Source: Synechococcus sp. HJ21-Hayes
Lineage (GTDB): Bacteria > Cyanobacteriota > Cyanobacteriia > PCC-6307 > Cyanobiaceae
Assembly: GCF_024345835.1 (NCBI RefSeq)
Contig: NZ_JAGQBW010000008.1
Location: 62,001-126,000, forward strand
Length of the DNA: 64,000 nucleotides
Direction of reading: 5' to 3'
Shown here piece after piece: positions 15,582-42,083 of the stretch. Made by a program: the position numbers and the translations under genes. Numbering within the stretch: position 1 is the stretch's first letter; each line of letters starts with the position of its first letter. The notes under the pieces were generated by a model. It ran no database searches, was not told the origin of the DNA, and saw only the letters and a list, made by a program, of their open reading frames with translations.

Positions 15582-16238
15582 ATGAAGTTCAGGCTCATCC
15601 AATCAAACAACCGAGGACTTGTTACCCGAGTGGGTGACCGGACCTACGCACGCAGCCGCCCAGCAAAGGGAGAGGAGCACTGCGAGCTGCCGACATTGTT
15701 CATCTGGGCAAATAAGCCCAGACGTCTTGTGGCTCGCTGCTGGACCCGCTGGACAGGAGAGAAGCTCGAGCGTGACTTCATCTATGAGGTGACGCGCTTT
15801 CGAGACGTCATCGATCTTCGAGGCGATACCCGCTATCACCAATGGTGCTCTCAACAGCTTCGGGAGCAGATGTGGAACATGAAGGAACCGGTTGCGGATG
15901 TCAGCGAGGAGCGCTGTCCTGAGCCCGAGACTGTTCATGAGCCTGACCGGCACAAGACCACGCGTTATCTCGAGCGAAGAAAAACACGACTGAGAACCCA
16001 GACGCCTTTGCTGACAGAGGAAGAAAAAGGGATCATTTCTGATCTCTATCAGCTCAGGGACTCACTCAATCAGGCTGCAGGCTATATCGCATACCACGTG
16101 GACCACATTAAGCCGCTAGCCCGGGGAGGCCTGCATCACCCAAGCAACTTGAGAGTAACAACATGCCGCGAAAACATGACCAAAGGGACGAAAGAATGGG
16201 AGGTGCCTCCTCCTGATCATCAAGTGATCGCTGGCTAG
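15582..16238 (+). CDS. HNH endonuclease-domain protein
   Basis: 218 residues. N-terminal half unrecognised. The C-terminal HNH motif is clear: AYHVDHIKPLARGGLHHPSN followed by LRVTTCRENMTKG, supplying the His-Asn-His metal site of the beta-beta-alpha fold. It lacks the paired CxxC zinc knuckles of many HNH proteins. It overlaps the end of brxA by 4 bases, tail to tail. Could be restriction-type or homing-type; the neighbouring nuclease-fold gene favours a two-gene nuclease module. Confidence 0.7.
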   Translation: MKFRLIQSNNRGLVTRVGDRTYARSRPAKGEEHCELPTLFIWANKPRRLVARCWTRWTGEKLERDFIYEVTRFRDVIDLRGDTRYHQWCSQQLREQMWNMKEPVADVSEERCPEPETVHEPDRHKTTRYLERRKTRLRTQTPLLTEEEKGIISDLYQLRDSLNQAAGYIAYHVDHIKPLARGGLHHPSNLRVTTCRENMTKGTKEWEVPPPDHQVIAG

Positions 16239-33283: not shown

Positions 33284-33547
33284 TTAGCCCGGAGCACCCC
33301 CTTGGACAATCTGGATACCTGTCTTTCTTCGAGGCTTTGTCTTCTCCTGAGTGGGCAGCAGGATGAAGTTGGCGCGTTTATTCAGACGCTTAGTGAGCTG
33401 ACGCAGCGTTTCCAGCTCACCCTGGCCATTCTCGAAAGCATGGAGGGCCGCCGAGACCTTCCTAATCGCCTGAGGCTCAATGCCCCTTGATCTGGCCTTC
33501 GCGATTACAGCTCTACAGTGAGCCGTGAAATTAGAGTGACTTGACAT
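33284..33547 (-). CDS. Small XRE/HigA-like helix-turn-helix protein
   Basis: 87 residues from ATG 33547 (TTG 33580 possible). AIRKVSAALHAFENGQGELE then TLRQLTKRLNKRANFILLP resembles a degenerate XRE-type HTH of HigA antitoxins (S..E.G.....TL..L...L.....). The tail is basic (QEKTKPRRKTG). It lies 48 bases after the second kinase gene, so it is probably the last gene of the phosphatase/kinase operon and may regulate it. No partner toxin is seen. Confidence 0.55.
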   Translation of the reverse strand: MSSHSNFTAHCRAVIAKARSRGIEPQAIRKVSAALHAFENGQGELETLRQLTKRLNKRANFILLPTQEKTKPRRKTGIQIVQGGAPG

Positions 33548-33595
33548 ATCCACCCGGCGGCCGCCTGGAGATTGAAGCAAAGACCAAAGCCTTAA

Positions 33596-34690
33596 TCAAG
33601 ATCGATCCTCCTGGTTGAGAAGAAGAACAGGATGTGCACGAGGATTGGGGTGACCAGGAAAGCAGGAGAAACAGACTTTTGTGCCAACAGTCAACTTGGG
33701 ACCGTAAACGCTCTTGTTGTTAAAAAAGACCTTGTTGCCATCTTCATCCCGAATCTCTCCATAAGCCCCAGATGGGTGAACGAAGATGCACTCCCCGAAT
33801 CTTCTCTCCGAGACCGTGTAGCACAAATCAGCGCATCTAGCAGACAGCTCCTGTGCGCTTGGTCGGTCTCCCGGACTCGGGCTCAAGCACTGAACAATAA
33901 TGTCAGCGAGATCATTAACAAGCGGATTAAACTGCGTCCTCCCAGGAAAACGAATTGGACGCTCAGGAATCTCCGCTTGCTGGATTTTTCCAACAGCGCC
34001 AAGGCCACGGCCGTACGGAGGGTCGCCCGTCAGCAGTTCATAGATCATTGCACCTACAGCCCAAATATCAGAGGCCATTCCTGCGCTCCCATGAGGCTTA
34101 AGAACCTCAGGGGCCATATACGGAAGAGCGCCAACTACAGTTTTGGATGCGGACATTGTCTCATCACCACCCACAACAGCATCATCAATTTCTTCACTGG
34201 CCATCTTTGCGATGCCGAAGTCAGTGATCTTAAGCTCGTGCACTTCGGGGCCACCAACAAACATTACGTTGCTGGGCTTAAGATCGCGGTGAATTACATC
34301 AGCACGGTGCGACGCCGCCAAGCCTTTTGCCAGGTGGTGCAGAATCTTTGCGACAAGTGAAGGATCAAGCGCAAAGAAGGGCTCAAGCAACCCCTTCTTA
34401 ATGTCTAGACCATCGATAAACTCCTCGACAAGATACTGAGCATCTCCGTCATTTAAGTAGTCTAATGTCTTTGCTACGTTCGGGTGATTAACTCTGGCGC
34501 TGACAACCGCACTTCGCCCGAATCGCTTATCGGCTGAAGTATTCTTTGGGGTCTTAATGGCAACATCACGATGCAGATGGAGATCCCTCGCAAGATAGAC
34601 TTCCTGCATGCCGCCCTCCCCCACATAGCGAGCAATCCTATAGCGTTCACCAATCAGGTCGCCTGATGAATGCAATAACCTACTTTTCAT
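33596..34690 (-). CDS. Ser/Thr protein kinase with C-terminal cold-shock-like domain
   Basis: 364 residues, no membrane segment. Kinase domain about 15-285 with all key motifs: YVGEGGMQEVYLARD, VAIKTP (Lys), VIHRDLKPSNVMF, ITDFGIAK, YMAPEVLK. Residues about 298-360 look like a cold-shock/OB domain (FGECIFVHPSGAYGEIRDED, then KVFFNNKSV, TVGTKVCFSC), which would bind RNA or single-stranded DNA. The start overlaps the stop of the FHA-kinase gene (ATGA). A kinase joined to a nucleic-acid-binding domain in an island suggests sensing of foreign nucleic acid or of translation stress. The function is inferred. Confidence 0.8.
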   Translation of the reverse strand: MKSRLLHSSGDLIGERYRIARYVGEGGMQEVYLARDLHLHRDVAIKTPKNTSADKRFGRSAVVSARVNHPNVAKTLDYLNDGDAQYLVEEFIDGLDIKKGLLEPFFALDPSLVAKILHHLAKGLAASHRADVIHRDLKPSNVMFVGGPEVHELKITDFGIAKMASEEIDDAVVGGDETMSASKTVVGALPYMAPEVLKPHGSAGMASDIWAVGAMIYELLTGDPPYGRGLGAVGKIQQAEIPERPIRFPGRTQFNPLVNDLADIIVQCLSPSPGDRPSAQELSARCADLCYTVSERRFGECIFVHPSGAYGEIRDEDGNKVFFNNKSVYGPKLTVGTKVCFSCFPGHPNPRAHPVLLLNQEDRS

Positions 34691-35754
34691 AGCACCACCT
34701 CTGGATTTGAAACGTCAAAAGTAGCGAATGCCCTTTTGTCCCCATTACCTCCTAGGGTGATCACACAACTCTTCGGAAGTGTCTCCCCTGCGGAAACAAG
34801 TCGATTGTTGACAAGCACATCAGCTGTCACCTCTTTGACGACAAAGGCAAAACCGTTGTAGTGAATGCCAATTACCCACTCATTACCGCCAGGCTTATCG
34901 CTGAGAACAAGCCGAACTGAAGCGTGGCTGGCATCTATGGTCCTAACGCTATTAGAGGTGACTAGTAAGCCCTTGTGACTACCTTTAAGCAAATAGGCTT
35001 CCAAGGCCCCTCGAAGTAGAGAGATTGATGGCCTGGCGGTCGGCTCAATCGCAAGCGCTCCATCCAATAGATCGCAAATATTGGGAGGTATCTTAAGGGC
35101 CAAAGAAGAAAAACTTGGCGGATTTCCCTGTCGCACAGGTGCGAGGCTAGATGGCGGATCCTCACCGGACAGATACCATGCAAGTATCCCGAAGGCATAG
35201 ACATCAACAGCAGTAGTAAATCTCGCATCACCTGGATAAAGCTCAGGCGCTGCATAACCAAACGTGCCCGCAAAGCCTTGCGTCTCACTGTTAACCTCTG
35301 AAAAGCGTGCAAGACCAAAATCAAAAATCTTCACGATGCCCGACCCGTCTTCCCTGATGTTGTCCCGCTTGATGTCGCGGTGGATCACTCCTTGATTATG
35401 GAGGTCCGACAAACCAGACGCTACCTGGTACAGAATAGAGACGTATCTGGCAAGAGAGTCTTCACCTGCACCAGCGATACTGAGCTCAGGACCCTCTAAA
35501 TATTCTAAAACGATTCCATAGCATGGAGCACTCTCATCTCTGAACACATCGTAAATCTGTACGACATGTTTTGATCTGACATTCTGGAGAGCAGATATCT
35601 CGTCAAGAAGACGGCGTTCATCCTCCGGATCATCAACAAACTTGATTGCTACCTTTCTCCTCAGAAGAGTGTCCTTACAGATATATACACGACTCATCCC
35701 GCCACGCATGGGCCTCTGTAGCGGTTCATATCTGGTGGGTATATGTCTCTCCAT
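34687..35754 (-). CDS. Ser/Thr protein kinase with C-terminal FHA-like domain
   Basis: 355 residues, soluble. Kinase motifs intact: RPMRGGMSRVYICKD, VAIKFVDD (Lys), VIHRDIKRDNIRED, IFDFGLAR, YAAPELYPG. The C-terminal part, about 265-345, reads as FHA-like: ASVRLVLSD, NEWVIGIHYN, then VNNRLVSAGETLPKSCVITL, the vNg..l...L..gd.I.lG pattern. FHA domains bind phosphothreonine, so this kinase could recognise targets phosphorylated by its neighbour or by itself. It follows the PP2C gene by 9 bases and overlaps the second kinase gene. Confidence 0.8.
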   Translation of the reverse strand: MERHIPTRYEPLQRPMRGGMSRVYICKDTLLRRKVAIKFVDDPEDERRLLDEISALQNVRSKHVVQIYDVFRDESAPCYGIVLEYLEGPELSIAGAGEDSLARYVSILYQVASGLSDLHNQGVIHRDIKRDNIREDGSGIVKIFDFGLARFSEVNSETQGFAGTFGYAAPELYPGDARFTTAVDVYAFGILAWYLSGEDPPSSLAPVRQGNPPSFSSLALKIPPNICDLLDGALAIEPTARPSISLLRGALEAYLLKGSHKGLLVTSNSVRTIDASHASVRLVLSDKPGGNEWVIGIHYNGFAFVVKEVTADVLVNNRLVSAGETLPKSCVITLGGNGDKRAFATFDVSNPEVVL

Positions 35755-35763
35755 GGCTAGCCC

Positions 35764-36927
35764 CTAGTCCTCCACGACCTCGATGAGAAGCTGGGGCTGA
35801 CCCTTATTGCTGCCTTCATGAAGCAATGATGGGTCGGTGCCAGCATTGTCTGATCGAAGCTCAACAGACTGCTGCCCCTCAATGGACGAGGCTGGGGTTT
35901 CTGATGAGCTCCTGGAAGAAACCCTTTCAGGCTTCGATGGGGTTCGACGCCTGCTTCTCCGTACAGGCTCTGAGTCCTTACCTCGAAAAAAGGCAGCACT
36001 TTCTTGCCTAGTCGTGAGTTCGTACTTGCCCTGCACACCCCAGATCTCTAGAGATCCATGCCCTTCATGAACTCCATTATGAAGGGAATCAGTCGTTCCA
36101 TCCCAAATGGCAACTGTTGCATTGTCTTTGCCCCCAGTCCAGTCTGCAAGAACCGTCAAACGCTTGGCAAGCTCAACAACGTTTACCGAGTTCTTGACAA
36201 TGTCAGAGAACACCTTGGCGTCTATTCCATGAGCTCCATCGCTTGTCAAGAAAATACATTTGAAGGAGCTTAAAGTAGAGGATAAGTCAATGGGATGGGG
36301 AACAATTCCTTTGCCCATTCCGACAAACTGCAATAGCTCTCCCATTCGACCGTGCAAGCTGGCTGCAGAGTCCTCAGGAAGGAGGTTGGCCAGGGTGTCA
36401 TCCTTTGAATACTGTTGCAAGCCGCCATCTTTCCACACCCCATAAATGCGGCTATCCCCAACATTCACGCCAGCCAGCTCACCGCTTCCAGAAGCGGCGA
36501 CCGCCGAGAGAGTGGATCCGCCACGGCCTCCAAAACGACGATAAACGTCGTCATTGGCTACCTGGACAGCCATGCAGAGCTGGTCAACAAGCTTTCCAGA
36601 CTTTTTGGCCGAAAAAGCCGCTACGAATGAACTCAGAGCAAGCTCTGCGGCGGTCGCACCATCGACCATGCCACCCATCCCATCGCAAAGCACGAGGGCT
36701 TGCACCGCGGGCCACTCAGGGGCTTGCGGGCGCAGCCTTAGGAACAAAGACCTGTCTTGGTTCTCTTCACGCTTGCCGATAGAGCTTGAGATAAAGGCAA
36801 GTCTTTTTTCTACTAGAAATGAACCCGTATTTTCATTCTCCCTCAACCATCGGAGCACAGCCGACTTGACTTCTTCTCGGAAGGAGCCGGCTACGGCCAC
36901 ACTTGCTGGAGCATAGGACCATTCCAT
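35764..36927 (-). CDS. PP2C-type protein phosphatase
   Basis: 387 residues from ATG 36927. PP2C motifs in order: KREENQDRSLFL, LVLCDGMGGMVDG, NVGDSRIYGVW, FLTSDGAHGIDA and GGKDNATVAIWDG, so the metal-binding Asp residues are present. The C-terminal 100 residues are Arg/Ser-rich and acidic (PVRRSRRRTPSKPERVSSRS) and may be a kinase target. First gene of the operon; it would reverse phosphorylation by the two kinases downstream. Its DNA is visibly less GC-rich than the flanking regions. Confidence 0.85.
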   Translation of the reverse strand: MEWSYAPASVAVAGSFREEVKSAVLRWLRENENTGSFLVEKRLAFISSSIGKREENQDRSLFLRLRPQAPEWPAVQALVLCDGMGGMVDGATAAELALSSFVAAFSAKKSGKLVDQLCMAVQVANDDVYRRFGGRGGSTLSAVAASGSGELAGVNVGDSRIYGVWKDGGLQQYSKDDTLANLLPEDSAASLHGRMGELLQFVGMGKGIVPHPIDLSSTLSSFKCIFLTSDGAHGIDAKVFSDIVKNSVNVVELAKRLTVLADWTGGKDNATVAIWDGTTDSLHNGVHEGHGSLEIWGVQGKYELTTRQESAAFFRGKDSEPVRRSRRRTPSKPERVSSRSSSETPASSIEGQQSVELRSDNAGTDPSLLHEGSNKGQPQLLIEVVED

Positions 36928-37178: not shown

Positions 37179-38051
37179 CTAGCCTTGGTGATGCTGCACC
37201 AAAAATGCCTCGATCCAGTCGTGATGTCGCTGCTGGCAGATTCGATCAGCTATCGAGGGAGCATCAGCCGGTACTTGGAAGCGCTTGCGGAACGCCTTGC
37301 TGAATCCGTCCAGCATCGGGGCAGGCAGGGTTCGGATGGTGGCATGCAGCTGGCGAATTCTGGCCGGATCGAGGGGTGCCAGGCCTGGGTCGAGGCCTGG
37401 TGGCGGGGCTGTCCCGGCAGGGTCCGTTAAGGGTGGCTCAGTTTTCGCTGTCGCCTGGGACTGTGATCCCAGGCCGTGGGTTCTGACCGTTGGCGGGATG
37501 GCAGCTGGCGGCACTACACGCAGCGGCGTGGTCCTCGGCCGGCTGGCCTGGCTACTGCTGGAGCGATCCCCAGAGCTGCCGGCCCCGCTGGTGACCTCGC
37601 GTTGCTGCTTGTCGTAGAGGGCAAGGCCGAAGGGGTTGCCGAAGGTCATCAGCGCCCGCTTCATGGCATCGGTTTCGGCCTCCTTGAGGGCGGATTCATG
37701 GGCCTGGCCCAGGTCGGCGTCGATGCCGTGGCCGGCCCCGCAACCCTCCCTGATCACCGCTGCTGCACTGGTGGGGCCGCCGACGGTGACGCGGACCCGG
37801 GCGGTGTAGGTGACGCCCCAGCCGGGCCTCTGGTCCCGCCCAATGGTGCGCTCAGCCTGGCTGACGCAACGGACCTCGATGGTTTCCCGCTGCCAGCCAT
37901 CGAACCCGAAGATCCGATTGGCTTCCGCGATCACCTGCCACCCCTCCAGGTAGCTGACCTTGGAGCGGCCCTGCTCGCGCTGCTTCACCTTGGCGCGATC
38001 GAGGGGGGCGGAGAGGCAGGCGATCTGCTCGGTGGAGAAGGTGCACGTCAT
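37179..38051 (-). CDS. Rad52/Rad22-family single-strand annealing protein
   Basis: 290 residues. N-terminal Rad52-like core, about 15-155: SYLEGWQVIAEANRIFGFDG, GWGVTYTARVRVTVGG, then REGCGAGHGIDADLGQAHES and ALKEAETDAMKRALMTFGNP with FGLALYDK. This is the phage-type Rad52/22 family that anneals complementary single strands during recombination. The C-terminal half is Pro/Ser/Thr-rich and ends in a short helical domain. It is the last of a four-gene reverse-strand unit with Gp157-like and SLOG genes, a typical phage early recombination cassette. Confidence 0.85.
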   Translation of the reverse strand: MTCTFSTEQIACLSAPLDRAKVKQREQGRSKVSYLEGWQVIAEANRIFGFDGWQRETIEVRCVSQAERTIGRDQRPGWGVTYTARVRVTVGGPTSAAAVIREGCGAGHGIDADLGQAHESALKEAETDAMKRALMTFGNPFGLALYDKQQREVTSGAGSSGDRSSSSQASRPRTTPLRVVPPAAIPPTVRTHGLGSQSQATAKTEPPLTDPAGTAPPPGLDPGLAPLDPARIRQLHATIRTLPAPMLDGFSKAFRKRFQVPADAPSIADRICQQRHHDWIEAFLVQHHQG

Positions 38052-38086
38052 GGCTTCGAGGGGGTGAGTGGGAACAGGAACCGGGA

Positions 38087-38299
38087 TCAGTGGGTGGAGG
38101 TTTGAGGCGGCAACGGCTCGATCAGCACCCAGCAGGGCGGCTCGCTGCAGTGGATGTGATCGGGCGAGGGGCGGCGGCCGGGCTTGCGGGTGATCGGTAC
38201 CACCCAGCTGCTCAGCCGTGTGGACCAGATGTGGCCCCTGGGCCGCGGGCTGGTGGGTGTGGTGGTGGAGCTGGCGCTGCCGTAGGTGGAGAGATCCAT
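38087..38299 (-). CDS. Hypothetical protein, 70 aa
   Basis: MDLSTYGSASSTTTPTSPRP, then HIWSTRLSSWVVPITRKPGR and CSEPPCWVLIEPLPPQTSTH. It lies between the Gp157-like and Rad52-like genes with short gaps on either side. No family recognised; inclusion rests on operon position. Confidence 0.45.
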   Translation of the reverse strand: MDLSTYGSASSTTTPTSPRPRGHIWSTRLSSWVVPITRKPGRRPSPDHIHCSEPPCWVLIEPLPPQTSTH

Positions 38300-38384
38300 G
38301 GCTTTTGAGGTGGTGAGGATTTCGACTGGAGGCGTGTCTGGGCCTGCCCCTGCAGCAGGCCGATGAGGAGGGGGCGCTGCCCCG

Positions 38385-39008
38385 TCAGTGGATGCGCCAA
38401 GAGCGACGGGAGACGAGCTGGGCGCCAGGGATGAGGTGACCGGCTTTGAGGGCCTCCTTGATGGCGGCCTTGTCCGGCTTGCTGGTGGTGGTGACAGTGA
38501 GCCACTCGGGATCGAGGGCTTCTTCGTCGTCGATCACCACCGCTTGGGCCTTCCTGCTGCTGAGCTCGTGATTCGGGAAGGAGAAGCGGGTGGCCGATGG
38601 CTGCAGGCGGGAGAGGACCAGGACGAGGGAGTCCTCCAGGGCATCGGCCCGGGAGGCATCGGAGCGAGACAGATCGGTGAGCCGCTTGGCCTGTTGCTGG
38701 CGGTAGGCGGCCTGGCCGCGCAGGTGCTCGATCACCCAGCAGGTGGCGTCGGCCTTGGCCGCAAGGGCCTGCTTGTTGCCCTCTTCGGCCAGCAGGGCGG
38801 CCTCCAACTCAGCGAGGGCCCTGGCGCGGGTGTCGCCGTCATCGGATTCCAGCTGCTCGGCGAGTTGGCCGATGGCGGTGGTGAGCTCCTGGGCCTCGAT
38901 GCCCAGCTGCCAGAGGGAGCCGGAGCGCTGGAGGGAACAATCAGGACCAGAGGCTTCCGGGGCCGAGGCAGGGGCGGCAGCGGTGGGGAAGGGGGTGAGA
39001 ACGGCCAT
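38385..39008 (-). CDS. Gp157-like phage protein
   Basis: 207 residues from ATG 39008. A helical, charged region (AQELTTAIGQLAEQLESDDG, then LAELEAALLAEEGNKQALAA) is followed by a C-terminal block LTVTTTSKPDKAAIKEALKA and GHLIPGAQLVSRRSW. PDK.AIK.ALK.G....GA.L is the signature of the Siphovirus Gp157 family, found beside recombination genes of temperate phages. Function is unclear; some members are linked to phage resistance or replication. Confidence 0.75.
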   Translation of the reverse strand: MAVLTPFPTAAAPASAPEASGPDCSLQRSGSLWQLGIEAQELTTAIGQLAEQLESDDGDTRARALAELEAALLAEEGNKQALAAKADATCWVIEHLRGQAAYRQQQAKRLTDLSRSDASRADALEDSLVLVLSRLQPSATRFSFPNHELSSRKAQAVVIDDEEALDPEWLTVTTTSKPDKAAIKEALKAGHLIPGAQLVSRRSWRIH

Positions 39009-39077
39009 GACGGTGAGAGGAGGGATAGGGAATGGAGCGGGAGGCGCCACAGAACGCCAAAGACTTGTGGTGGGTGA

Positions 39078-39575: not shown

Positions 39576-39984
39576 AGATTCGGCTGCCAAAAGTGACAAC
39601 TGATCGGGGCATCACAACCGCTCAGGCATACGCAGCGGTGATGGCGAGACCAGGGATTAGGTTGCCGCCGGCGATGGGCTTGGGGCCTTTGGCGCAGCCC
39701 TTATTCTACCAGTACAGGTGCACTATGGAAGCAGCAGAGCAGCTGCAGTGCAATGGATCTGAATGAAGCCGAGCCCAGGGCGGACAGAGATAGAAAGTAC
39801 CGATGAAGCCCGCCAGATTCGGCGCCCAAGATCTCAGCTCGCGCAGTCGCGCGTGGCAATTTGACGCCTCACTTCAGCCCCGCCTTACAGGCAGAGGACA
39901 GCCGCGCCACCGCAGCCGCGGGAAAACGGCCTTGCCCGCCACCTCCCATCACCGGCCCTGGAGCGGAGGGCGGCGGCCCCCGGG
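39576..39984. other. Promoter region of the recombination cassette
   Basis: About 410 bases between the SLOG gene and the IS element. It holds a LexA-like box at 39711-39723 and a fragment at 39582-39601 resembling the sequence just inside the right end of the IS (GCCAAA..GTGACAACT). No convincing gene. Open frames here look like GC-rich background. Confidence 0.5.
39711..39723 (-). promoter_or_regulatory. LexA/SOS-box-like palindrome
   Basis: AGTACAGGTGCAC, one mismatch to RGTACNNNDGTWC. It lies 136 bases upstream of the SLOG start, a plausible operator for the recombination cassette. Confidence 0.4.
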
Positions 39985-40001
39985 TTCAGGAAAGATGTCA
40001 C
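39985..40001 (+). repeat. IS left inverted repeat
   Basis: TTCAGGAAAGATGTCAC, 16 of 17 bases complementary to the right end at 41669-41685. Confidence 0.75.
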
Positions 40002-40041
40002 CCCTTTCATCCGTACACCCGGGGGCTTGAGGACATGACCA

Positions 40042-40548
40042 ATGCGTCGTTACAGCGAGGCCATCAAGGCTGATGTGAGGAGGCGAATGAGCCCGCCGTA
40101 CAGGCAGAGCGTGGCCCGGATTTCAGAAGAGCTGGGCATCCACGTGATCACCCTCTACAAATGGAGGAAGTCCTGGCGGTTGCAGGGAGAGGTGGTGCCG
40201 GCATCCGAAAAGGACCCTGACGGCTGGAGCGCCGCCGACAAGTTCACGGTGGTGCTGGAGACCGCCGGTCTGAATGCGACTGAGCTCAGTGCCTACTGCC
40301 GCGAGCGTGGTCTCTTTCCTGAGCAGGTGAGCCGCTGGCGTCAGACCGCTCAGGATGCCAACGCCAAGCCGGTGCTGACGATGGCCGAGCAGAAGGAGCT
40401 CGAAAGGTTCCGTGCCCAGGACCAGCGGGAGATCAAAGCACTCAAGAAGGAGCTGCAGCGCAAGGAGAAGGCCCTGGCGGAGGCGGCGGCCTTGCTGGTG
40501 CTGCGAAAAAAGTGGGATGCCTTCTGCTCGGAGGACGCGGAAGGTTGA
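40042..40548 (+). CDS. IS3-family transposase OrfA
   Basis: 168 residues. An N-terminal helix-turn-helix (SVARISEELGIHVITLYKWR) recognises the IS ends. The C terminus is a leucine-zipper-like helix (ELERFRAQDQREIKALKKEL, then KEKALAEAAALLVLRKKW). The A6G slip site lies at codons RKK near the end, so a fraction of ribosomes would shift by -1 into orfB and make the fused transposase. Confidence 0.85.
   Translation: MRRYSEAIKADVRRRMSPPYRQSVARISEELGIHVITLYKWRKSWRLQGEVVPASEKDPDGWSAADKFTVVLETAGLNATELSAYCRERGLFPEQVSRWRQTAQDANAKPVLTMAEQKELERFRAQDQREIKALKKELQRKEKALAEAAALLVLRKKWDAFCSEDAEG
40506..40512 (+). promoter_or_regulatory. Programmed -1 frameshift site (A AAA AAG)
   Basis: AAAAAAG lies in the orfA frame as CGA-AAA-AAG, the exact X-XXY-YYZ heptamer used by IS3 elements. 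The -1 frame continues without a stop as orfB. Confidence 0.85.
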
Positions 40549-41654
40549 CCAGCGCCGCGAACCGGCGACAGGTGATCGAGCTGATCGGCGAGGCGAATGC
40601 CGCTGGCGCAGGCCTGGTGAGCGCCTGCGGTGAGATCGGCATCTGCCTGCGCACCCTCAAACGCTGGCGGAAGGCCTTTCTGGGTGATGGGGACGGCAAG
40701 GACCGCCGTAAATGCAGTCCCCGCCATGTCGCTCACCGACTGAGCGAGGAGGAACGCCAGCGGATCCTGCTGACGTGCAACCAGCCGGAGTACGCCTCGC
40801 TGCCACCAGGCCAGATCGTGCCGGCCCTGGCTGATCAGGGGCTGTTTATAGGTTCAGAGAGCAGCTTCTATCGGGTGTTGCACCAGGCGGGGCAGTGCCA
40901 CCGGCGTGGGCGTGCACGGCTTCCGCAGGAACCCCGCTCCGTGCCGCGCCTGATGGCGGATGGCCCAAACCGGGTTTGGAGCTGGGATATCAGCTTTTTG
41001 CCGACCACGGTGCGGGGTGTGTGGCTGTACCTCTATCTGGTGGTCGACGTCTGGAGCCGCAAGGTGGTGGCCTGGGATGTGGCCGAGGTGGAGTCGGCTG
41101 AAATCGCGGCGGATCTGGTGCAGCGGGCCTGTCTCAAGGAGCGCTACCGGCGGCCCAGCGGCTTTGGCAGCCACCAGTGCCACCAGCCACTAATCCTCCA
41201 CGCTGACAACGGCAATGCTATGCGTGGGGCCACGCTGGAAACGCGGCTGGAGGAGATGGGAGTGCTCAGATCCTTCTCCAGGCCAAGGGTCTCCAACGAC
41301 AACCCCTACTCGGAATCCCTGTTCCGAACGGTCAAGTACCGGCCCGACTACCCCAGACGGCCATTCACCAGCAAAGACGAGGCCTGCGAGTGGGTGGTGG
41401 CATTTGTGGACTGGTACAACCACCGGCACCGCCACAGCGGTATCAAATTCGTGACGCCCCATCAGCGTCACAGCCGAGCCGCCAAGGCCATTTGCCAGCA
41501 CCGAGCCGATGTCTACGAAAGGGCCCGGCAATCCAATCCAACACGCTGGAGCCGGAGCACCCGCTGCTGGCGCCAACCAGAAGACGTGTGGATCAACAAG
41601 CCACCAGAAGAGCCGGAACCGGCCCAGGCGTTATCCTTGATTCAGGCCGCCTGA
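40512..41654 (+). CDS. IS3-family transposase OrfB (DDE catalytic part)
   Basis: 380 codons in the -1 frame, expected as a fusion with OrfA. An HTH-like helper region (ICLRTLKRWRKAFLGDGDGK) precedes the DDE core: RVWSWDISFLPTTVRG (first Asp), LILHADNGNAMRG (second Asp) and NPYSESLFRTVKYRPDY (Glu). WYNHRHRHSGIKFVTPHQRH is the typical IS3 end. All catalytic residues are present. Confidence 0.9.
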   Translation: MGCLLLGGRGRLTSAANRRQVIELIGEANAAGAGLVSACGEIGICLRTLKRWRKAFLGDGDGKDRRKCSPRHVAHRLSEEERQRILLTCNQPEYASLPPGQIVPALADQGLFIGSESSFYRVLHQAGQCHRRGRARLPQEPRSVPRLMADGPNRVWSWDISFLPTTVRGVWLYLYLVVDVWSRKVVAWDVAEVESAEIAADLVQRACLKERYRRPSGFGSHQCHQPLILHADNGNAMRGATLETRLEEMGVLRSFSRPRVSNDNPYSESLFRTVKYRPDYPRRPFTSKDEACEWVVAFVDWYNHRHRHSGIKFVTPHQRHSRAAKAICQHRADVYERARQSNPTRWSRSTRCWRQPEDVWINKPPEEPEPAQALSLIQAA

Positions 41655-41668
41655 GTGGCAGCCAAAGA

Positions 41669-41685
41669 GTGACAACTTTCCTGAA
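41669..41685 (-). repeat. IS right inverted repeat
   Basis: GTGACAACTTTCCTGAA on the forward strand, the reverse complement of TTCAGGAAAGTTGTCAC. Confidence 0.75.
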
Positions 41686-42083
41686 AGTCACCGCGGCGGC
41701 TGGCCGATGCACGCCACGGCGCAGCCGTGGCACGCTGAAGGACGGCCGTCGCCGACCGAAGCCACTGCTGAAACCGCAGGGGATACGACGTTGGCTAACC
41801 CATGCAGCCAATCTCTCGCCACGCTGGAATCAACTTTCTGATCTTGCTTCTACCTCGCGGTCTCGGCAAAGATTTTCCATGGACAAAGGAATGCTGGGCT
41901 TGCGTAAAGAGAACGCCCTTCGCAGAGCAGCCCACGCCCCTTTGCCCCATGCCCACCGGCTCCAGCCTGCGCCTTCTCACAGCAGGAGAGAAAGCAAAAA
42001 CCTTCTCACAGACCTTCTCACATCCAAGCCTGAGGGTTTATGAGACTCACGGGGGCGCAAGCAGTTCGGCCAATCAATCGAGA
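41686..42083. other. Island end segment with short direct repeats
   Basis: No convincing gene. Contains a perfect hairpin (GCCACGGC, loop GCA, GCCGTGGC, 41713-41731) and three copies of CCTTCTCACA (41972-41981, 42001-42010, 42013-42022). These could be recombinase arm-binding sites beside the attachment site. From 42045 a short frame, after a stop, reads RKQFGQSIEKLPKLNVAGSS into the tRNA copy, like an integrase tail. Confidence 0.45.

What the first reader, a model, noticed from the sequence alone, without database searches (positions are those of the whole stretch)
33284..36927. Operon of PP2C phosphatase, FHA-like kinase, cold-shock-domain kinase and small HTH: candidate undescribed signalling/defence system
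Four genes are packed with 9 bases, a 4-base overlap and 48 bases between them. The kinases are soluble with intact HRD and DFG motifs, unlike most bacterial membrane STKs. One carries a C-terminal FHA-like phospho-Thr reader and the other a cold-shock/OB-like domain that could bind RNA or single-stranded DNA. The phosphatase motifs are intact. The operon lies in an island between BREX and a phage-type recombination cassette and is visibly AT-richer than its surroundings. I know TerY-P triads (TerY, PP2C, kinase) and PglW-type kinases in defence, but not this set. A circuit in which the CSD kinase senses foreign or damaged nucleic acid, the FHA kinase relays and PP2C resets would explain the composition.
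Basis: partly seen in the sequence, partly recalled or inferred. Interest (0 to 1): 0.8.

Follow-up and report, generated by a model that had tools for sequence, protein, structure and literature searches.

The report
KKP phage-defence module, cyanobacterial copy
Three neighbouring genes for a phosphatase and two protein kinases form a cyanobacterial copy of the recently described KKP (kinase-kinase-phosphatase) toxin-antitoxin and anti-phage module, so the set is real but already known rather than an undescribed system.

Summary
In detail: PP2C (35764-36927), kinase 1 (34687-35754) and kinase 2 (33596-34690) are intact, tightly packed, in DNA of about 52% GC against 66-70% around it. The set is not undescribed. 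It matches the KKP module (PfpC-PfkB-PfkA; Guo et al. 2024, PMC11341870) in gene order, lengths, GGM/HRD/DFG motifs and cold-shock tail. KKP is a tripartite toxin-antitoxin: two kinases are jointly toxic and the phosphatase restrains them until a phage protein disables it. That paper already lists Cyanobacteria. I found the triad in proteobacterial and cyanobacterial chromosomes, conjugative plasmids, P2- and Mu-like phages and 14 of 5,426 E. coli genomes. The fourth gene is local to this genome, has no supported HTH domain, and is not a KKP part. The pThr-reading FHA claim has no sequence support. The nucleic-acid-sensor idea is weakened: the cold-shock GFI motif reads GEI here and FFH reads FFN. 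The genome holds two diverged copies, each between a different BREX system and a Rad52/gp157 pair. Verdict: new member of a known kind, with unusual motif changes and a repeated BREX neighbourhood. Function here is inferred, not tested.

The parts
35764..36927 (-). PfpC-like PP2C phosphatase (antitoxin), with a variable linker and a conserved C-terminal motif PQLLIEV
   Evidence: PP2C structure matches at 5e-12; metal-site motifs DGMGG, GDSR, SDG and GGKDN intact; homologous PP2C in the same place in other loci
34687..35754 (-). PfkB-like Ser/Thr kinase with a C-terminal beta domain (called FHA in the literature)
   Evidence: Pkinase 1.4e-38; GGM, HRD, DFG and alpha-C Glu52 present; beta-strand tail from residue 262; FHA identity not confirmed
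33596..34690 (-). PfkA-like Ser/Thr kinase with a C-terminal cold-shock (OB) domain
   Evidence: Pkinase 4.6e-44; family profile of the tail matches cold-shock proteins such as CspB at 2e-8; five-strand tail with pLDDT about 90; lacks alpha-C Glu as all homologs compared do
33284..33547 (-). small downstream ORF of unknown function, a local passenger and not a KKP component
   Evidence: found only beside the two KKP copies of this genome, in none of 118 relatives and in none of the other KKP loci fetched up to then; no family

Best explanation
The three genes are a KKP module: a phosphorylation-based tripartite toxin-antitoxin system used in phage defence. By analogy with the characterised modules, the PP2C phosphatase keeps two mutually dependent kinases dephosphorylated and quiet. 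A phage product (T4 Gp59 in E. coli, RepG4 in P. aeruginosa) inhibits or removes the phosphatase. The kinases then activate together and phosphorylate many host replication, translation and division proteins, arresting growth before the phage can multiply. Shown here: homology, order, motifs, co-inheritance, mobility and defence-island context. Inferred from published work on other members: toxicity, neutralisation and trigger. The small downstream ORF is not a component.
For: The published KKP definition (PP2C, then FHA kinase, then CSD kinase, each gene 900-1300 bp, GGM/HRD/DFG motifs) fits: gene lengths 1164, 1068 and 1095 bp, same order, motifs present. The same triad with the cold-shock tail occurs in cyanobacteria, Burkholderiales, Thiomargarita/Thioploca MAGs and Methylobacterium, on conjugative Rhizobium and Xanthobacter plasmids, in a P2-type phage-plasmid of E. 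coli (52% PfkA identity), in a Klebsiella Peduoviridae phage and in IMG/VR contigs, one with Mu-like head genes. In E. coli 14 of 5,426 genomes carry it, while DNA matching the cassette's phage-side flank is found in 2,136 genomes, so it is an exchangeable insert next to the phage portal gene. Pairwise distances of the three proteins correlate at r 0.90-0.93 over 23 loci. Homologs of the known trigger Gp59 are common in cyanophages (320 records named Synechococcus phage and 45 named cyanophage).
Against: The cold-shock GFI/A motif needed for toxicity and defence in two tested modules reads GEI here, and the next motif FFH reads FFN. The FHA assignment of the PfkB tail could not be confirmed. 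No Pf6 reference sequence was available for direct comparison. No function was tested in any cyanobacterium.
Confidence: 0.85

Rival explanations
1. The module works as an accessory or back-up arm of BREX: when BREX fails, the kinases arrest the cell, or the kinases control BREX proteins directly.
For: Both copies in this genome lie between a BREX locus and Rad52/gp157. The window BREX is PglZ, BrxHI, PglXI, BrxC, BrxF; the second is BrxB, BrxC, PglX.
Against: The two BREX systems are of different types. Most of the family lives without BREX beside it (plasmids, P2- and Mu-like phages, other chromosomal sites). A survey of BREX diversity does not mention PP2C. n = 2 and the two islands share flanking genes.
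Confidence: 0.1
2. The module regulates lysogeny or excision of a resident mobile element (such as one carrying Rad52/gp157) through phosphorylation of a host silencer, as Pf6 KKP does through MvaU, rather than defending the cell.
For: Pf6 KKP controls Pf phages. Rad52 and Gp157/Gam-like genes lie next to both copies. Integrases lie near some other copies.
Against: No integrase, repressor or structural phage gene was identified in the annotated neighbourhood of the window copy, although the rest of the window was not fully annotated. Four unrelated KKPs defend E. coli.
Confidence: 0.15
3. One reading: the cold-shock kinase senses foreign or damaged nucleic acid and the FHA kinase relays by reading phospho-Thr.
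For: The cold-shock domain is real at the family level, and its GFI motif is needed in tested modules.
Against: The known trigger acts on the phosphatase. In this copy GFI is GEI and FFH is FFN. FHA pThr-binding residues are not seen and no FHA match was found.
Confidence: 0.08
4. An ordinary housekeeping signalling operon of cyanobacteria.
For: Ser/Thr kinases and PP2C phosphatases are common in cyanobacteria (general knowledge).
Against: Only 2 of 386 cyanobacterial genomes sampled carry it at E<=1e-60; low GC; scattered presence on phages and plasmids.
Confidence: 0.02

Closest known systems
KKP module (PfkA-PfkB-PfpC), Pseudomonas Pf6 prophage and >1200 relatives, Guo et al. 2024 (PMC11341870)
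   Same: Gene order PP2C - kinase - kinase with cold-shock tail, gene sizes, GGM/HRD/DFG motifs, mobile and defence context; Cyanobacteria already in the published list.
   Different: Chromosomal island beside BREX, two copies in one genome, cold-shock motif GEI instead of GFI/A and FFN instead of FFH, extra small local ORF; FHA identity not confirmed here.
BREX type 2 kinase PglW
   Same: Contains a Ser/Thr kinase and is part of a defence locus.
   Different: PglW is one large protein with a NERD nuclease and extra domains; the window kinases are short and lack them; no PglW among the window BREX proteins scanned.
Single-kinase defences Stk2 and PD-T4-6, and the MADS kinase Mad6
   Same: The kinase domains match their PADLOC profiles.
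   Different: The matches cover the kinase domain only; Stk2 is a single-locus kinase system, whereas here two kinases and a PP2C are inherited together.

Membership tests
KKP module | Order PP2C, kinase, kinase on one strand, each gene 900-1300 bp | tested here: met
   1164, 1068 and 1095 bp, spacing 9 and -4; published rule
KKP module | GGM, HRD and DFG motifs in both kinases | tested here: met
   RGGM/HRD/DFG and EGGM/HRD/DFG
KKP module | Last kinase (PfkA) ends in a cold-shock domain | tested here: met
   18 of 23 aligned tails hit Pfam CSD at E<=0.1, though the window tail alone does not; family profile hits CspB at 2e-8; five-strand model
KKP module | GFI/A motif in the cold-shock domain (conserved, and needed for function in tested modules; not itself the filter used to define KKP) | tested here: not met
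   GEI in the window, GKI in the second copy and in L005, GLI in L006 and L017; GFI or GFA in most others
KKP module | Middle kinase (PfkB) ends in an FHA domain | tested here: inconclusive
   Homologous tail throughout the family and beta-rich model, but 0 of 22 tails hit Pfam FHA, no FHA among PDB sequence hits, hhalign to real FHA domains no better than a control; structure search filled by kinase domains
KKP module | PP2C phosphatase with catalytic motifs | tested here: met
   Motifs intact, PstP match 5e-12
KKP module | Joint kinase toxicity neutralised by the phosphatase; phage defence | not testable with these tools
   Needs expression and phage assays
BREX type 2 kinase PglW | NERD nuclease fused to kinase in a large protein | tested here: not met
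   Proteins of 355 and 364 aa with only kinase-type Pfam hits; PglW profile matches the kinase part only
Stk2 / PD-T4-6 single-kinase defence | Stand-alone kinase gene as the whole system | tested here: not met
   Three-gene co-inherited set

The most novel reading that the evidence does not exclude
In this picocyanobacterial branch the PfkA cold-shock domain has given up its nucleic-acid-binding motif (GFI to GEI/GKI, FFH to FFN) and serves as a protein interface only, and KKP is kept as a second line behind BREX, with duplicate diverged copies that could answer to different phages.
Probability: 0.12. Interest if true: 0.5.

Novelty: new member of a known kind. Interest (0 to 1): 0.32.

Why it matters
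It places a characterised phosphorylation-based abortive defence in picocyanobacteria, whose phages commonly carry homologs of the known trigger Gp59. It offers natural variants (a cold-shock domain without GFI, two diverged copies in one cell, a conserved phosphatase tail motif) that could test which parts sense, dock and kill.

Tried and rejected
A fourth component: the small ORF was searched in 119 genomes and in the KKP loci fetched up, and found only beside the two copies of this genome, so dropped. A conserved effector gene next to the triad: none shared across 13 loci. FHA confirmation by Pfam, PDB profile and hhalign: nothing above control. Structure searches (BFVD; VIA-align on PDB) were filled by kinase domains, so the tails were barely tested and nothing follows from the absence of FHA or OB rows there. 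tRNA genes near the islands as att sites: none. A viral-contig scan with the Pantoea PfkA gave nothing and I did not identify a Pf6 record, so there is no direct comparison with the founding module. A promoter and terminator scan found no more than shuffles.

Full report
Observation. Both kinases are intact Pkinase proteins and the phosphatase matches PP2C structures such as PstP. The small ORF has no recognisable HTH.

The set is conserved. A scan of GTDB genomes with the last kinase gave relatives whose cold-shock tail aligns to the end. Beside them stood a kinase like the middle one and a PP2C in the same order and with similar short overlaps, in other cyanobacteria, Burkholderiales, Thiomargarita and Thioploca MAGs and Methylobacterium. 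In a few loci a kinase gene is split or a flank is missing. No further gene is shared between these loci. The triad is also found on plasmids, in an E. coli P2-type phage-plasmid beside the portal gene, in a Klebsiella Peduoviridae phage and in viral contigs, one with Mu-like head genes. In E. coli 14 of 5,426 genomes hold it, while DNA matching the phage-side flank of the cassette is found in 2,136 genomes. Distances of the three proteins over 23 loci correlate at 0.90-0.93, with 0 of 500 permutations as high (the permutation does not correct for relatedness of the loci). The module therefore moves as a unit.

It is KKP. A literature search found the kinase-kinase-phosphatase module of Pseudomonas Pf6 and its relatives (PMC11341870). 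That paper defines it by PP2C, then an FHA kinase (PfkB), then a cold-shock kinase (PfkA), and names Cyanobacteria among carriers. It shows that the two kinases are jointly toxic, that PfpC neutralises them, that T4 Gp59 binds and inhibits PfpC, and that four unrelated modules protect E. coli. A later paper reports that the Pf4 protein RepG4 also activates KKP by causing degradation of the phosphatase (PMC13048266). The window triad meets the order, length and kinase-motif criteria.

Where this copy differs. In the cold-shock tail the GFI/A motif is GEI, and FFH is FFN; the second copy has GKI and FFN, L005 has GKI, L006 has GLI. An aromatic residue just before the G (Y, F, F, W) is present in these four, which may compensate (inference). 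The middle kinase's tail is a beta domain in the model, but no sequence method recognised FHA and the usual pThr-binding residues are not visible. I treat FHA here as inconclusive. I still file the set under KKP because all three proteins are full-length homologs of members that keep GFI (for example L033 and L034, about 60% identity in PfkA), and because GFI is a conserved functional motif rather than the filter that defined the family.

Two family-wide features that I did not see mentioned in the passages of the KKP paper that I read. First, PfkA lacks the alpha-C glutamate in all 23 homologs compared (RSA, RGA and the like), while PfkB keeps it; this fits the published finding that neither kinase gives appreciable phosphorylation alone (inference). 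Second, PfpC ends, after a variable linker, in a short motif close to [PS]QLxI[ED][IVF], present in most homologs from E. coli phage copies to this one. I suggest it is a docking peptide (untested).

Context. The genome holds two KKP copies. The window copy lies between BREX genes (PglZ, BrxHI, PglXI, BrxC, BrxF) and Rad52 plus Gp157/Gam-like genes. The second copy lies between BrxB/BrxC/PglX and the same Rad52/gp157 pair. Kinase 2 is 81% identical between copies, kinase 1 and PP2C about 60%. Four-fold-site differences are 0.57, 0.73 and 0.68 for these, against 0.33-0.45 for the small ORF, Rad52 and gp157, so the kinase-phosphatase core appears older or exchanged separately from its surroundings; base composition was not corrected for. 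In Aphanothece and two related viral contigs the module follows an SNF2-type defence helicase. KKP is rare in cyanobacteria: 2 of 386 sampled genomes at the cut-off used. The Gp59 family is common in cyanophages, so the known trigger type exists for this kind of host.

Verdict. The finding is real, the 'undescribed system' claim is not, and the proposed nucleic-acid sensor is not favoured. Most likely it is an anti-phage toxin-antitoxin of the KKP kind. The steps from trigger to growth arrest are inferred from other members.

Noticed in passing
35764-36927 and homologs: PfpC phosphatases end in a conserved short motif near [PS]QLxI[ED][IVF] after a variable linker; possible docking peptide.
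   Followed up: partly
33596-34690 and 22 homologs: PfkA kinases lack the alpha-C glutamate (Ser or Gly instead), a family-wide oddity, while PfkB keeps it.
   Followed up: partly
39978-41692: Insertion sequence with an rve-type transposase; the uninterrupted site is seen in L020 near 15994-15998.
   Followed up: partly
37179-39050 and L020:13549-15390: Rad52-like gene and Sipho_Gp157/Gam-like gene lie beside both KKP copies, as if the two islands share a chassis.
   Followed up: partly
L007:4101-5519: NERD-kinase protein next to a KKP in Phormidium, similar to PglW and MkoA profiles.
   Followed up: no
L027:6111-7559: Protein annotated with a Shedu SduA domain directly upstream of KKP on a Rhizobium plasmid.
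   Followed up: no
L025:3985-4200: Non-coding flank between the KKP cassette and the P2-type portal gene is matched in over two thousand E. coli genomes, nearly all without KKP, so the site looks like a swap site for cargo.
   Followed up: partly
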